The translations under genes and the position numbers were made by a program. DNA of 64,000 bases. It comes from an uncultured Burkholderiales bacterium (GTDB lineage Bacteria > Pseudomonadota > Gammaproteobacteria > Burkholderiales > Burkholderiaceae_C). Positions 7,360-31,650 of this stretch are shown one piece after another. Under the pieces are notes generated by a model that was not told the DNA's origin, did not search any database, and saw only the letters and a list, made by a program, of their open reading frames with translations. The stretch spans positions 1-64,000 of the forward strand of contig CAIWAO010000128.1 in assembly GCA_903910745.1 (NCBI GenBank). Reading direction: 5' to 3'. Within the stretch, counting starts at the first letter, position 1, and each line of letters begins with the position of its first letter.

Positions 7360-7962
7360 TTGAATACAAAACTTGTCATCCTTGATCGGGATGGAACGAT
7401 CAACCACGATAGAGACGACTACGTAAAGTCTGTTCAAGAGTGGCAACCTTTGCCTGGAGCGATAGAGGCTATTTCAAAAATGAATCATGCCGGATGGCAT
7501 GTTGTTGTTGCAAGCAATCAATCTGGGCTTGGACGGGGGCTTTTTGATGTAGATACACTAAACGCAATGCACAGCAAAATGAACAAGTTGTTAGCCGCAG
7601 AAGGTGGGCGTATTGACGCTGTTTTTTATTGCCCGCATACACCCGAGGATAAGTGCAATTGTCGAAAGCCTCTAAGCGGTTTATTTATCCAAATCGGGGA
7701 GCGATACGGTATAGATTTAAAGGGTGTACCGGCTGTAGGTGACTCTTTAAGAGATTTGCAGGCCTGTGAACAAGCAGGGTGTAACCCTCATTTGGTATTA
7801 ACGGGAAAGGGCGAACAGTATAGGTATGTTGAAATACCAGATCACTTCCCAAAGAAAACTGTTGTGCACAAAGACTTACTGGCGTTTGCAGATTGGCTTT
7901 TGCTAAATGACAAATCGCTTGGTAAAAATAGTATTTCAAGAGCCCGCAATAGCCCGCAATAG
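7360..7962 (+). CDS. gmhB: D-glycero-beta-D-manno-heptose 1,7-bisphosphate 7-phosphatase
   Basis: A HAD-superfamily phosphatase of LPS-heptose synthesis that removes the 7-phosphate of heptose bisphosphate. The 200-residue protein has the nucleophile motif DRDGT (Asp9, Asp11), SNQSG, the zinc-loop cysteines and histidine in CPHTPEDKCNCRKP that mark the GmhB/HisB-N branch, and GDSLRDLQ as the last HAD motif. Start is a TTG at 7360 with a purine-rich gagagacgag just upstream; no ATG exists before the essential DRD motif. The final residues are encoded by a 10-bp tandem duplication. It lies between glyS and plsC, the normal order. Confidence 0.93.
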   Translation: MNTKLVILDRDGTINHDRDDYVKSVQEWQPLPGAIEAISKMNHAGWHVVVASNQSGLGRGLFDVDTLNAMHSKMNKLLAAEGGRIDAVFYCPHTPEDKCNCRKPLSGLFIQIGERYGIDLKGVPAVGDSLRDLQACEQAGCNPHLVLTGKGEQYRYVEIPDHFPKKTVVHKDLLAFADWLLLNDKSLGKNSISRARNSPQ

Positions 7963-26022: not shown

Positions 26023-27552
26023 TTAAGAGACTTTCACGCTATTGATCAAATCCTCTAAGATACTCATATCTACGGGTTTAGTCAGTAAGTATGCAATTTT
26101 ATATTTTGAACTTAAACTTTGTATTTCTTGGTCAATCTGACCAGAGATCACAGCAATGGTGGTTTGAGGATTCACGACGTGGTGTATTTGACCAAGAAGT
26201 TGGGGGCCACTTAGTCCTGGCATATTCCAATCCAAAATTACTAAGTTAAAGAAATGAGTGCTTAAAAGATTTACTGCTTCTTGACCACTCCCCGTTTCCT
26301 CAACCTGCATGCGATTCCAATTGGAAGCGGGATTTGCAGGACTTTGTTTCGAACTTGCATCTGATTGACTCGCTAAATTTTTTTCCTCTATTCGTTTTAA
26401 TGCGAGTTTTAGTACGTGTCGATTGACAACCAAATCTTCAATAATTAGAACCTTTAAATTAGAAGTCTTTGAGTCTGCAATACATACAGGTGAAGACATT
26501 GGTACAGACATTGGTACAGACATAGGGGCAGACACAGGCGCAGGCATAAGCTCAGGCATAAGCTCAGGCATAAGCTCAGGCATAAGCTCAGGCATAAGCT
26601 CAGACAAAGGCGGCGCATCGTCTAAGCCTCTCAGCTCATCTGGTTGTGTCTTTGTTGCGATGATGAGTGAGAAAGTTGTCCCGTGACTTTTTGGGTTTAT
26701 CTTTTTACTCTCACTAATGACTTGAATTTGCCAGTCGTTTGCGTCAGCTAAACTTTTGACAATTGAGAGCCCCAGTCCCGTGCTTTCGTTGTGTATCAGA
26801 AGGTTACTTGGGCTTTCTGTGTCTAAGTTTGCATTGTCTAAGTTTGCCGTGTAAAAAGGCTCGAATATTCGGGTTAGGTTTTCCTTTTCTATTCCATCCC
26901 CCGAATCACTAACCAAAACCTGAAGTGCAGGCTCAATACCTAGTGATGTATTTGTTATTGAGATTTTTACAAATCCCTTACTTGTAAATTTTATTGCGTT
27001 ATGAACCAAGTTAATCAATATTTGCCTTAGGCGTTGGCCGTCTAAGAACATTTTTTCGGGTAAATTTTCTTCAATTTGTAACTGAATGTTTAGATTTTTA
27101 GCCTTTGCCAGTTCAGTAAAAGATTTATAAACATCTTCAGTTATTTGCACAACCGAAACCCATTGAGGTCTAACGGCAAAGGATTTAGAGCGGATTTGAG
27201 CACTATCCAAAATCTCATTCACAAGCGCCTTTAGATGATCGCTTGCTTGTATGGCAGCGTCGATATGCTCTGCTGCTTGCAAGGGCAGTGCGGGGGTTTC
27301 TTTAGAGAGACTTAAATGCATAAGGACGACTGACAAAGGAGAGCGAAGTTCGTGGCTAATAAAAGCGCTCCATAAATCTTGACGCCTAGATTGCTCTTTT
27401 AAAGATTTGATTTGATTTCTTAGTTTTAAATTGGCAGTTAAGAAAAAAAGAGAAACAATTAAGAAGCATAAAAGTATCAAAATAAAAGCCCAAACCATAA
27501 TCCCAGTGACATCGGTTTCCCAAAATGAACGACTTGGAGATAGGATTGACAT
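26023..27552 (-). CDS. Membrane hybrid histidine kinase with receiver domain
   Basis: A 509-residue hybrid kinase: one membrane helix (about 17-40), H box SHELRSPL (His67), N box LINLVHNAIKF (Asn185), G boxes SDSGDGIE and GLGLSIVKSL, and a C-terminal receiver with acidic pocket IED (near 371), phospho-acceptor Asp441 in VILDWNMPG and the conserved Lys in LLTKPVD. There is no periplasmic sensing domain, so the signal is unclear. A Met/Pro-rich linker of 12-bp repeats (about residues 318-355) joins kinase and receiver. No separate response regulator gene lies beside it, so phosphate may pass to a distant partner. Confidence 0.92.
   Translation of the reverse strand: MSILSPSRSFWETDVTGIMVWAFILILLCFLIVSLFFLTANLKLRNQIKSLKEQSRRQDLWSAFISHELRSPLSVVLMHLSLSKETPALPLQAAEHIDAAIQASDHLKALVNEILDSAQIRSKSFAVRPQWVSVVQITEDVYKSFTELAKAKNLNIQLQIEENLPEKMFLDGQRLRQILINLVHNAIKFTSKGFVKISITNTSLGIEPALQVLVSDSGDGIEKENLTRIFEPFYTANLDNANLDTESPSNLLIHNESTGLGLSIVKSLADANDWQIQVISESKKINPKSHGTTFSLIIATKTQPDELRGLDDAPPLSELMPELMPELMPELMPELMPAPVSAPMSVPMSVPMSSPVCIADSKTSNLKVLIIEDLVVNRHVLKLALKRIEEKNLASQSDASSKQSPANPASNWNRMQVEETGSGQEAVNLLSTHFFNLVILDWNMPGLSGPQLLGQIHHVVNPQTTIAVISGQIDQEIQSLSSKYKIAYLLTKPVDMSILEDLINSVKVS
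26493..26600 (-). repeat. 12-bp minisatellite in the kinase gene
   Basis: Nine 12-bp units in a row: five near-identical copies of caggcataagct (26541-26600, plus-strand reading) and four diverged copies to the left (cagacattggta type). On the minus strand they encode a repeated ELMP tetrapeptide and then related VPMS/APMS units. The repeats keep the reading frame at any copy number, so linker length between the kinase core and the receiver can vary. Confidence 0.93.
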
Positions 27553-29534: not shown

Positions 29535-30359
29535 ATGAGCAATATAAGTATTGAATTTTTTCCTCCGAAAACGCCCGAGGGCGCACAAAAATTACGCGCA
29601 GTTAGAAAAACGCTTTATGAGTTAAAGCCGCATTTTTGTTCTGTCACCTACGGAGCCGGTGGCGCAACACAGGCGGGAACTTTTGCAACAGTTGCTGAAA
29701 TTCTTGCTGAAGGGGAGGAAGCTGCTTCACACTTCTCTTGTATTGGTGCAAGCACCGAGAAAGTACGCTCTGAACTGCTTGAATTAAAAAGCATGGGCGT
29801 TAAACGACTTGTCGCTCTTCGCGGAGACTTACCAAGCGGTTACGGCTTGGGCGGTGAGTTTCACTATGCAAGCGATTTGGTACGCTTCATCCGAGCTGAG
29901 ATGGGAGATTATTTTCATATCGAAGTTGCAGCTTACCCAGAGTTTCATCCTCAGTCACCAAGTCCACAGAGTGATTTAAAAGCACTTCTTGAGAAAACTC
30001 GTGCAGGTGCTAACTCTGCAATAACGCAGTACTTCTTTAACCAAGATGCCTACCTGCGATTTGTACACGATGCACTTGCTTTGGGTATTGAGATACCGAT
30101 AATTCCCGGCATCATGCCAATCTCTAGTGCAGCTCAGTTGATCAGATTCTCTGACGCCTGTGGTGCTGAAATCCCGCGTTGGCTCAGGCTAAGACTTCAG
30201 TCATTTGGTGACGATGTGGAATCGATTCGTGACTTCGGAGTTGAGGTGATTACGCATTTATGTGAACAGTTGTTAAAAGCTGGTGCGCCGAGTTTGCATT
30301 TCTATAGTATGAATCAATCAAGTGCTGTGATGCAGATCTGTAAGAATTTAAATCTCTAA
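29535..30359 (+). CDS. metF: 5,10-methylenetetrahydrofolate reductase
   Basis: Flavoprotein that makes 5-methyl-THF for methionine synthesis. The 274-residue protein starts ISIEFFPPKTPEGA (the conserved E-F-F-P-P-K), and has VTYGAGGA, LALRGD-like VALRGDLPSG, AAYPEFHPQSPS and ITQYFFNQDAYLRF, all MetF signatures. The length is normal (about 275-300). The ATG at 29535 is followed immediately by the conserved start, although the ribosome-binding site is weak. Functionally linked to ahcY upstream. Three short GTC...GAC hairpins lie in its leader at 29446-29487. Confidence 0.96.
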   Translation: MSNISIEFFPPKTPEGAQKLRAVRKTLYELKPHFCSVTYGAGGATQAGTFATVAEILAEGEEAASHFSCIGASTEKVRSELLELKSMGVKRLVALRGDLPSGYGLGGEFHYASDLVRFIRAEMGDYFHIEVAAYPEFHPQSPSPQSDLKALLEKTRAGANSAITQYFFNQDAYLRFVHDALALGIEIPIIPGIMPISSAAQLIRFSDACGAEIPRWLRLRLQSFGDDVESIRDFGVEVITHLCEQLLKAGAPSLHFYSMNQSSAVMQICKNLNL

Positions 30360-30414
30360 TATTGAGAGCAAACGTTGAGGGGATCAGTACTTATAAATGG
30401 TGTCATAAAAAGTT

Positions 30415-30444
30415 TTAAGAAAAGCTTCAAATTTTATTTATAAT
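30415..30444 (+). promoter_or_regulatory. Promoter of the tRNA-like gene
   Basis: A perfect -10 TATAAT (30439-30444) with a plausible -35 TTAAGA (30415-30420) 18 bp upstream. The start site would fall at about 30451, directly at the tRNA 5' end. Confidence 0.65.
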
Positions 30445-30452
30445 GCAACCGC

Positions 30453-30528
30453 GGGCTGTTAGCTCAGTGGTAGAGCAGAAGACACTTAATCTTTTGGTCG
30501 GAGTGTTCAAATCCTCCACAGCCCACCA
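30453..30528 (+). tRNA. tRNA-Lys-like (CUU), atypical
   Basis: A 76-base cloverleaf with encoded CCA. The acceptor stem gggctgt/acagccc is perfect, the D stem gctc/gagc is perfect, and the anticodon stem gaaga/tcttt pairs with one G-U. The anticodon loop reads CACTTAA, giving anticodon CTT (lysine) but with A instead of the nearly universal T at position 33. The T arm is irregular: ggag can pair with ctcc, leaving a T-C mismatch and an eight-base loop around ttcaaat. Either a divergent tRNA-Lys(CUU) or a tRNA-like/pseudo-tRNA. It has its own promoter and downstream terminator. Confidence 0.8.
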
Positions 30529-30597
30529 CTTAAGTGTTTAATTTTGACGTTAATTATTAGTGTATTTTTATCGGTGTTGTTTATCATCGCTGGTTAT

Positions 30598-30642
30598 AAA
30601 AATGGACCCAAGTGCGAATCATTTTGTACTGGGTCCATTTTT
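30598..30642. terminator. Bidirectional terminator between the tRNA and cysK
   Basis: A 13-bp perfect stem (aaaaatggaccca / tgggtccattttt) is extended inward by agtgc/gtact. Being A/T-flanked on both sides, it can end the plus-strand tRNA transcript and the minus-strand cysK transcript, whose stop is 33 bp away. Confidence 0.92.
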
Positions 30643-30675: not shown

Positions 30676-31650
30676 TCAGCTAACAGCAAGCCCCTTTTCG
30701 TCAAACATTCCTTCAAACAAAGCAGAGCTTAGATAACGTTCTGCTAAATCGGGGAGGATCACAACGATAGTTTTACCGGCATATTCGGGTTGTTTGGCAA
30801 GCCGAACCGCAACCGCGGCAGCCGCCCCACAGGAGATTCCTACGAGTATCCCTTCCTCCCTTGCAAGTCTTCTCGCAAACTCAATGGCCTCTTCATTAGA
30901 GACTAGTTCGACTTTGTCAATCATGCTCAGGTCTAGGGTTTCAGGAATAAACCCTGCACCAATTCCTTGAATCTTATGGGGTCCTGGCTTTAGTTCCTCA
31001 CCCTTCATTTTTTGCGAGATCACGGGGCTGTGGGTTGGCTCAACCGCGACCGTCTCAATCGCTTTTTTCATGGTGTTTTTAATGTACCGAGAAACCCCCG
31101 TTAAAGTCCCCCCGGTACCGACTCCGCTGACGAAGACGTCAACGCCTCCTTTTGTATCTGTCCAGATTTCGGGGCCAGTTGTTTTTTCATGTATTGCTGG
31201 ATTGGCAGGGTTTTTAAATTGATGGAGCAACACATATTTAGAATCTGATGCGGCGATCTCAGTTGCTTTTGCAATAGCTCCATTCATCCCTTTGGCCCCC
31301 TCGGTCAAAACCAGTCTAGCGCCAAGGGCTGTGAGCAGTTTGCGTCGCTCCATGCTCATGGTCTCTGGCATCGTGAGCGTGATTGGAATCCCTTTTGCGG
31401 CAGCAACAAAGGCCAAAGCGATTCCCGTGTTGCCACTGGTGGGCTCTATCAGCTCTTTGCCTGCGCCGAGGAGTCCTTTATCGATCGCGTCATGAATCAT
31501 CGCCGCTCCGATACGACATTTGACCGAGTATGCTGGGTTGCGTCCCTCTATTTTTGCTAAAACAGTTGCATGTGCGCCCGCTGTTACTCGGTTCAAACGA
31601 ATTAAGGGGGTGTTACCAATTGAGAGAGAGTTGTCGTCGTATAAAGCCAT
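30676..31650 (-). CDS. cysK: Cysteine synthase (O-acetylserine sulfhydrylase)
   Basis: A PLP enzyme that makes cysteine from O-acetylserine and sulfide. The 324-residue protein has [12 protein letters not shown], the PLP lysine Lys44 in YSVKCRIG, the substrate loop [13 protein letters not shown] and the phosphate-binding [10 protein letters not shown]. The [11 protein letters not shown] form matches what I remember of the Pseudomonas-type CysK. CysM is the alternative label. The PLP site and length are intact. Transcribed toward the tRNA terminator; divergent from rlmJ over a 150-bp gap. Confidence 0.92.

What the first reader, a model, noticed from the sequence alone, without database searches (positions are those of the whole stretch)
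30453..30528. Transcribed tRNA-like gene with A33 and an irregular T arm
The cloverleaf is perfect in acceptor and D stems and has an encoded CCA, but the anticodon loop is CACTTAA (A at position 33, normally U, beside a CUU anticodon), the T stem has a mismatch and the T loop gains a base. A strong TATAAT promoter abuts it and a 13-bp bidirectional terminator follows, so it seems expressed. It could be a tolerated odd tRNA-Lys, a decaying copy, or a tRNA-like RNA with another role.
Basis: partly seen in the sequence, partly recalled or inferred. Interest (0 to 1): 0.72.

Follow-up and report, generated by a model that had tools for sequence, protein, structure and literature searches.

The report
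Conserved lysine tRNA with odd loops
A lake bacterium and its six closest held relatives keep, almost letter for letter, a spare lysine tRNA whose anticodon loop and T arm break rules that nearly all tRNAs obey, so it is probably a working RNA with an unusual job and not a broken gene.

Summary
The gene is real: ARAGORN and Rfam call tRNA-Lys(CUU) at 30453-30528, with A33 and a base bulged from the T stem. It is neither a sequencing error nor a decaying copy. Seven of 84 genomes of the genus carry it, all just downstream of metF, as one branch of a metF tree. It is 76/76 identical in five and 74/76 in two, while metF four-fold sites differ by 57-75% in 20 of 21 pairs. A promoter block is conserved in all seven; six of seven have a clear downstream terminator-like hairpin. 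Elsewhere, one pattern scan found the loop in one other called tRNA (Succinivibrio MAG); in 398 other genomes of the order a non-U33 pattern found none. LysRS anticodon determinants are kept. A33 and the bulge should weaken decoding and EF-Tu delivery (inferred). I favour a charged tRNA-Lys under-used in elongation and kept for a specialised role; an inefficient AAG decoder is a close rival. Three transferase families searched gave no match in the seven genomes, so no partner is known.

The parts
30402..30424 (+). conserved upstream block GTCATAAAAAGTTTTAAGAAAAG (UP-element or activator-site position plus -35 region)
   Evidence: Found at this locus in 6 of 7 A33 genomes with up to 3 mismatches; the seventh (G061) has a one-base deletion seen in the alignment; one other hit, G069:C18, 3 mismatches
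30415..30444 (+). sigma-70-like promoter: TTAAGA, 18 bp, TATAAT
   Evidence: TATTTATAAT is invariant in 7 of 7
30453..30528 (+). tRNA-Lys(CUU) gene with encoded CCA
   Evidence: ARAGORN; RF00005 55 bits; 76/76 identical in five of seven genomes, 74/76 in two
30470..30470 (+). position G19, which is T in G060 and G078
30484..30484 (+). A33 (normally U33)
   Evidence: sequence; A in 7 of 7 orthologues
30485..30487 (+). anticodon CTT
30504..30504 (+). bulged pyrimidine of the T stem, between positions 52 and 53 (T in five, C in two orthologues)
30598..30642 (.). hairpin with 13-bp outer stem, A-run and T-run (terminator-like), between convergent transcription units
   Evidence: different hairpins, also far better than shuffles, in G061 and G060 and G019 and G078
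29535..30359 (+). metF, conserved upstream neighbour
   Evidence: TIGR00676 above cut-off; syntenic in 7 of 7
30676..31650 (-). cysK, downstream neighbour in this genome
   Evidence: TIGR01139 above cut-off; no such gene listed directly downstream in the other six loci

Best explanation
This is an actively maintained tRNA-Lys(CUU) of one subclade of an uncultured Burkholderiales genus. Shown here: it is orthologous in seven genomes, sits downstream of metF in each, has a conserved promoter block, and is conserved about as tightly as the ordinary tRNA-Lys(UUU), with the deviations (A33, T-stem bulge) included. Inferred: it is transcribed alone, trimmed, and charged by ordinary LysRS, because the CUU anticodon and A73 are kept. 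Its A33 disfavours the U-turn, and the bulge lies in the T stem, the region by which EF-Tu recognises tRNA. So it is probably under-used in ordinary elongation, where tRNA-Lys(UUU) can read AAG by wobble, and is kept for a specialised task: as a lysyl donor outside the ribosome, or as a slow reader in particular conditions. No partner enzyme is identified.
For: Seven of 84 genus genomes carry it downstream of sahH and metF, one branch of a 30-row metF tree at 100/100. It is 76/76 in five and 74/76 in two, while metF four-fold sites differ 57-75% in 20 of 21 pairs. tRNA-Lys(UUU) is identical in the five of seven genomes where it was found, so the constraint is of the same order. A promoter block is conserved in 7 of 7. 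The cloverleaf pairs hold in 7 of 7. 68 of 84 genus genomes (many of them incomplete) have no CUU tRNA-Lys fitting the pattern (16 of the 20 genomes with a match have a tRNA there, read), so the gene seems not to be needed to read AAG. A review passage states that EF-Tu recognises tRNA mainly through the T stem and that U33 is critical for the turn (PMC11415595); a selection study saw no mutation at position 33 and calls it likely essential (PMC4764823, passage).
Against: No RNA data. PF09924, PF02388 and PF13480 gave no match in any of the seven genomes; CDPS was inconclusive. A33 does not bar translation: tRNA-ProX with A33 is described as delivered to the ribosome in E. coli (PMC11415595). 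tRNA-Lys(UUU) was not found by pattern in G019 (99% complete) or G012 (68%), so redundancy is not shown in all seven. AAG usage in the fetched loci was uninformative.
Confidence: 0.43

Rival explanations
1. It is an ordinary but inefficient AAG-decoding elongator tRNA in which A33 and the bulge are tolerated, or help to tune its rate.
For: Full cloverleaf, CCA, LysRS anticodon determinants and tRNA-Lys(CUU) ancestry: of 69 distinct tRNAs compared, apart from its own two-base variant, the best score (64, matches less gap penalties; identity would be 76) is a tRNA-Lys(CUU) of the genus. A33 tRNA-ProX reaches the ribosome in E. coli (PMC11415595).
Against: U33 is one mutation away, yet A33 persists in seven genomes across near-saturated synonymous divergence. 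The bulge persists too, and two genomes also lost G19. AAG is not raised in A33 genomes: 0.354 against 0.479 in loci of CUU-less relatives, but gene sets and GC differ.
Confidence: 0.32
2. It is a tRNA-shaped regulatory RNA, acting by base pairing through its loop or by binding a protein, like tRNA-Other of Bacillus cereus.
For: Own promoter block, downstream hairpin, no evident translational need, irregular anticodon loop; tRNA-Other is a precedent (PMC3399842, abstract and introduction).
Against: The acceptor end and LysRS anticodon determinants are intact and CCA is encoded. The flanks are not conserved beyond the promoter block and, in five of seven, a hairpin. The palindrome that complements the loop just after CCA occurs only in the window among the seven.
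Confidence: 0.13
3. It is a backup tRNA-Lys that resists anticodon nucleases or toxins which cut tRNA-Lys at the loop.
For: tRNA-Lys is a known target of anticodon nucleases and toxins, and phages evade such systems with their own tRNAs (titles and abstract starts in the listings: PMC11555353, PMC7033543, PMC2610378; not read further). A changed loop could be a poor substrate.
Against: It does not explain the T-stem bulge or the shortened D loop. No nuclease was searched for in these genomes.
Confidence: 0.06
4. It is a decaying or pseudogene copy, or an assembly error.
For: It is non-canonical, and most genomes of the genus show no CUU gene (68 of 84 by the pattern).
Against: Identical in five genomes and near-identical in two at an orthologous site, with the promoter block kept; separate MAGs with differing flanks.
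Confidence: 0.03

Closest known systems
Canonical bacterial tRNA-Lys(CUU)
   Same: Anticodon, A73, G1-C72, overall body (alignment scores 62-64, with 76 for identity, against six of the genus's other seven distinct CUU tRNAs and 53.5 against one), encoded CCA
   Different: A33 in place of U33, bulged base in the T stem, D loop one base shorter
Streptomyces tRNA-ProX (PMC11415595: abstract, passages, sections 17 and 18 read)
   Same: A bacterial family with A33, rare, host function unknown
   Different: ProX has Pro elements, A34 and a partner ProRSx and mistranslates; here the body and the anticodon agree on Lys and the wobble base is C34
Staphylococcus aureus non-proteinogenic tRNA-Gly (PMC9976931, passage read)
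   Same: Extra isoacceptor with T-stem changes said to escape EF-Tu
   Different: There the changes are at pairs 49-65 and 51-63 and the tRNAs serve peptidoglycan synthesis; here a bulge between 52 and 53, and no FemAB (PF02388) match in any of the seven genomes
Bacillus cereus tRNA-Other (PMC3399842, abstract and introduction read)
   Same: Pseudo-tRNA kept in a bacterium beside the working set
   Different: Trp anticodon, poorly charged in vitro, beside a pathogenicity island and part of longer RNAs; here a housekeeping locus with a promoter close to the 5' end and a downstream hairpin
selC* tRNA-Cys (PMC7609411, passages read)
   Same: An unpaired base bulges from the T stem (A51a)
   Different: 8/4 architecture; here 7/5 architecture

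Membership tests
tRNA (Rfam RF00005) | covariance score above the gathering cut-off | tested here: met
   55 bits against 29
Canonical elongator tRNA-Lys | Lys anticodon with U35 U36 and discriminator A73 | tested here: met
   sequence; U35 and U36 as determinants in PMC9976931 (passage); the weight of A73 for class II LysRS is recalled
Canonical elongator tRNA-Lys | U33 | tested here: not met
   A33 in 7 of 7 orthologues
Canonical elongator tRNA-Lys | uninterrupted 5-bp T stem | tested here: not met
   bulged base at 30504; present in 7 of 7
Canonical elongator tRNA-Lys | charged with Lys and found on ribosomes | not testable with these tools
   needs RNA work
Non-ribosomal lysyl donor (MprF or Fem type system) | a matching tRNA-dependent transferase in the genome | tested here: not met
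   PF09924 matched 0 of 7 A33 genomes (7 of 84 in genus); PF02388 0 of 7 (9 of 22 examined); PF13480 0 of 7 (15 of 22 examined); one of the seven is only 68% complete
Non-ribosomal lysyl donor (cyclodipeptide synthase) | CDPS gene | tested here: inconclusive
   0 of 22, but no control genome rang either
tRNA-ProX | Pro body with A34 | tested here: not met
   C34 and a tRNA-Lys(CUU)-like body
tRNA-ProX | partner ProRSx | not tested
   no search made
Decaying tRNA gene | loss of constraint | tested here: not met
   74-76 of 76 conserved beside near-saturated synonymous sites
Phage-borne tRNA | same gene in phage or viral contigs | tested here: not met
   16 viral contigs matched the loop pattern, none called tRNA there by ARAGORN; 31 phage records match at 60-90% identity, none above 90%

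The most novel reading that the evidence does not exclude
A dedicated non-ribosomal lysyl-tRNA: a lysine isoacceptor that a bacterial clade has taken out of elongation by two separate lesions (A33 and a T-stem bulge) and keeps to feed an enzyme of an unknown family. A second set of genomes of the genus may have done the same by another route (a U1-U72 mismatch).
Probability: 0.2. Interest if true: 0.8.

Novelty: new variant of a known kind. Interest (0 to 1): 0.55.

Why it matters
U33 is among the most constant bases of tRNA. A natural bacterial tRNA that has kept A33 and an interrupted T stem over deep species divergence is a test case for what those features are needed for. The review read here says that the role of A33 in the mistranslating tRNAs that carry it is unexplored (PMC11415595, passage). 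If the tRNA is charged but barely translates, it points to a lysyl-tRNA-using pathway in Burkholderiales that the families tested here do not explain. The gene is short and can be tested in E. coli.

Tried and rejected
Sequencing or assembly error: rejected, seven genomes agree. Decay: rejected. Mobile or phage origin: the neighbours are housekeeping genes and the locus is vertical; viral pattern hits were not tRNAs; phage and plasmid matches lie at 60-90% identity (31 and 36 records), and their base 33 was not looked at. Lysyl-tRNA users: PF09924, PF02388 and PF13480 gave no match in the seven; CDPS inconclusive because no control rang. Mistranslation by a hybrid body: the best non-orthologous score is a tRNA-Lys(CUU) of the genus (64), but one tRNA-Met from another family of the order scores 62 and the genome's own tRNA-Lys(UUU) only 55, so the ancestry is likely and not proved. 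Loop-to-trailer pairing (CACTTAA with the palindrome after CCA): only in the window among the seven, so taken as chance. Codon usage: the AAG fraction gave no support for either side, and gene sets and GC differ. Promoter block as a regulon motif: found only here plus one 3-mismatch hit in G069. Consensus fold: tRNA pairs do not vary among the seven, so covariation says nothing about them. Terminator in G069: a 9-bp inverted repeat before a T run is seen by eye, but the fold of the stretch I chose preferred another structure, z -1.6, so I count six of seven.

Literature: ten searches were made. In these listings I saw no paper on an A33 tRNA-Lys(CUU) in Burkholderiales; the library lacks most subscription journals, so this does not show that none exists. 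Effects of A33 and of T-stem changes on decoding and EF-Tu rest on the passages cited and on general knowledge; none was measured for this RNA.

Full report
What is there. The window carries one tRNA gene found by ARAGORN, tRNA-Lys(CUU) at 30453-30528 on the + strand (RF00005 55 bits, gathering score 29). Read on the sequence, acceptor, D and anticodon stems pair fully, CCA is encoded, the loop is CACTTAA and so base 33 is A (30484). The D loop is one base shorter than in the other tRNA-Lys genes of the genus read here. Of 29 distinct tRNAs read from loci of 30 of the genome's 33 RF00005 hits, 28 have U33 and this one A33. An ordinary tRNA-Lys(UUU) is present elsewhere in the genome.

Who else has it. 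In the 84 held genomes of the genus, a pattern for tRNA-Lys(CUU) with any base 33 matched 20 genomes; reading the matches, 16 have a CUU tRNA and 4 only chance matches. Seven have the same A33 family: the window's genome, G012, G019, G060, G061, G069, G078. An eighth, G070, has an otherwise canonical CUU gene with A33 on one contig and the same gene with U33 on another. All seven A33-family loci lie downstream of sahH and metF (sahH, metF, cysK and rplM of the window named by NCBIfam; the downstream gene that I call rlmJ had no NCBIfam match and is named from memory, as is prfC upstream). In G012, G019, G061 and G069 the next large ORF is the rlmJ-like one; in the window cysK lies before it; in G060 and G078 a LysR-like gene (named from memory) follows. 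On a tree of 30 metF proteins the seven are one side of a branch with support 100/100. The 23 other metF loci read have no tRNA within the fetched flank; 72 of 84 genomes had a metF match, and those beyond the best 30 loci were not read. One scan of the collection of 84,980 species with the pattern GTAGAGCA-N5-CACTTAA-N6-GGT gave 8 hits: five are this genus, one is a Succinivibrio MAG with a tRNA-Lys body (57.9 bits, one mismatched T-stem pair), one a degenerate piece in Rhizobium aethiopicum and one in Clostridium algoriphilum; ARAGORN calls no tRNA in these last two loci. That pattern misses G060 and G078, and the tool leaves out the window's own genome, so the count is a lower bound. In 399 genomes of the order a pattern for tRNA-Lys with non-U33 matched only the window's own.

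It is under selection. The RNA is 76/76 identical in five genomes and 74/76 in G060 and G078, where G19 is T and the bulged T is C. In metF, which lies next to it, four-fold sites differ by 57-75% in 20 of 21 genome pairs; the one close pair, G060-G078, differs by 17%. The ordinary tRNA-Lys(UUU) is identical in the five of these seven genomes where a pattern found it; it was not found in G012 (68% complete) or G019 (99% complete). So this gene is held about as tightly as the main lysine tRNA, deviations included. Upstream, GTCAYAAAAAGTTTYAA...AAAAG (one base shorter in G061) and TATTTATAAT are shared by 7 of 7, while the bases further up align poorly. In the window the -10 ends 8 bases before G1, so the 5' leader must be very short if this is the promoter (inference). 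A hairpin with a T run follows: -29 kcal/mol, z -8.5 in the window, z -7.2 and -6.3 in G061 and G060, z -7.2 and -6.4 in G019 and G078. The aligned hairpin is shared by five of seven (G012, G019, G060, G061, G078). In G069 a 9-bp inverted repeat before a T run is seen by eye, but the stretch folded prefers another structure (z -1.6).

How it may work. U35 and U36 are LysRS determinants (PMC9976931, passage); they are kept, as is A73, so charging with lysine is likely (inference). A review states that U33 stabilises the sharp turn of the anticodon loop and that EF-Tu recognises tRNA mainly through the T stem (PMC11415595, passages). A33 and a bulge in the T stem should therefore both hamper elongation, and two genomes have in addition lost G19, which normally pairs with C56 (recalled). 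Because 68 of 84 genomes of the genus show no CUU gene of this kind (many are incomplete), AAG can probably be read without it. My best reading is a charged tRNA-Lys that is under-used in elongation and kept for a special task. The close rival is an inefficient AAG decoder: tRNA-ProX of Streptomyces has A33 too and is described as reaching the ribosome in E. coli (PMC11415595, section 17).

A partner was sought and not found. PF09924 (MprF C-terminal domain) matches 7 of 84 genus genomes at E 0.001 (6 over cut-off) and 0 of the 7 A33 genomes. PF02388 (FemAB) matches 9 of 22 and 0 of 7. PF13480 matches 15 of 22, that is all 15 others and 0 of 7. For the last two I examined 22 of the 84 genomes. 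CDPS was 0 of 22 but no control rang, so that result says nothing. This weakens the donor reading but does not exclude an unknown enzyme.

A parallel in the genus. Five other genomes (G018, G063, G066, G077, G083) share a different tRNA-Lys(CUU) at another conserved locus. It has U33 but a U1-U72 mismatch at the end of the acceptor stem; four are identical and one (G066) has a further change at base 3. A 1-72 mismatch is a recognition element of the bacterial initiator tRNA for the formyltransferase (PMC9976931, passage), though PMC7949028 says that the C1-A72 initiator can bind EF-Tu when formylation is deficient (passage). That two sets of genomes each keep a differently deviant CUU tRNA suggests that this isoacceptor is free of normal elongation duty in the genus, but it could also reflect separate relaxations.

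Limits. All evidence is from sequence. The genomes are mostly fragmented MAGs. The identity of genes beyond those named is from memory. The effects of A33 and of the bulge are inferred from general tRNA biology.

Noticed in passing
L082, L070, L071, L087, L088 (G018, G063, G066, G077, G083): A second deviant tRNA-Lys(CUU) family with U33 but a U1-U72 mismatch, at one conserved locus in five genomes of the genus; four identical, one with a further change at base 3.
   Followed up: partly
L074/L097/L105 (G070:C46) against L085/L106 (G070:C89): An otherwise canonical tRNA-Lys(CUU) with A33, one base from a U33 copy on another contig of the same MAG with related flanks; perhaps a second, independent origin of A33, or a mixed bin.
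   Followed up: partly
L098, 6872-6947 minus strand: A Succinivibrio MAG has a tRNA-Lys body with the same CACTTAA loop (57.9 bits) and one mismatched pair in the T stem.
   Followed up: partly
L091 near 7459-7534: Rhizobium aethiopicum carries a degenerate tRNA-Lys-like piece with a CACTTAA loop, not called a tRNA by ARAGORN or Rfam; perhaps an attachment-site remnant.
   Followed up: partly
L174, L177, L178, L179 (viral contigs): A stretch not called tRNA holds a CACTTAA loop closed by a stem that differs in both arms between the two pairs of contigs (TTGG/CCAA against TCAG/CTGA). Whole-stretch folds of two of them are not better than shuffles.
   Followed up: partly
Seven A33 genomes against 15 other genomes of the genus: PF13480 (Acetyltransf_6) has no match in the seven A33 genomes and matches in all 15 others examined, which looks like a clade-specific loss.
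   Followed up: no
window 26023-27552: The sensor kinase beside sahH is only 36-48% identical between A33 genomes (78% for G060-G078), while sahH is above 91% and metF about 80% or more.
   Followed up: no
window 30527-30536: A CACTTAAGTG palindrome overlaps the CCA end and could pair with the anticodon loop; it is not found in the six relatives.
   Followed up: yes
window 30676-31650: cysK lies between the tRNA and the rlmJ-like gene in the window's genome but is not seen there in the other six loci, a local insertion or rearrangement.
   Followed up: no
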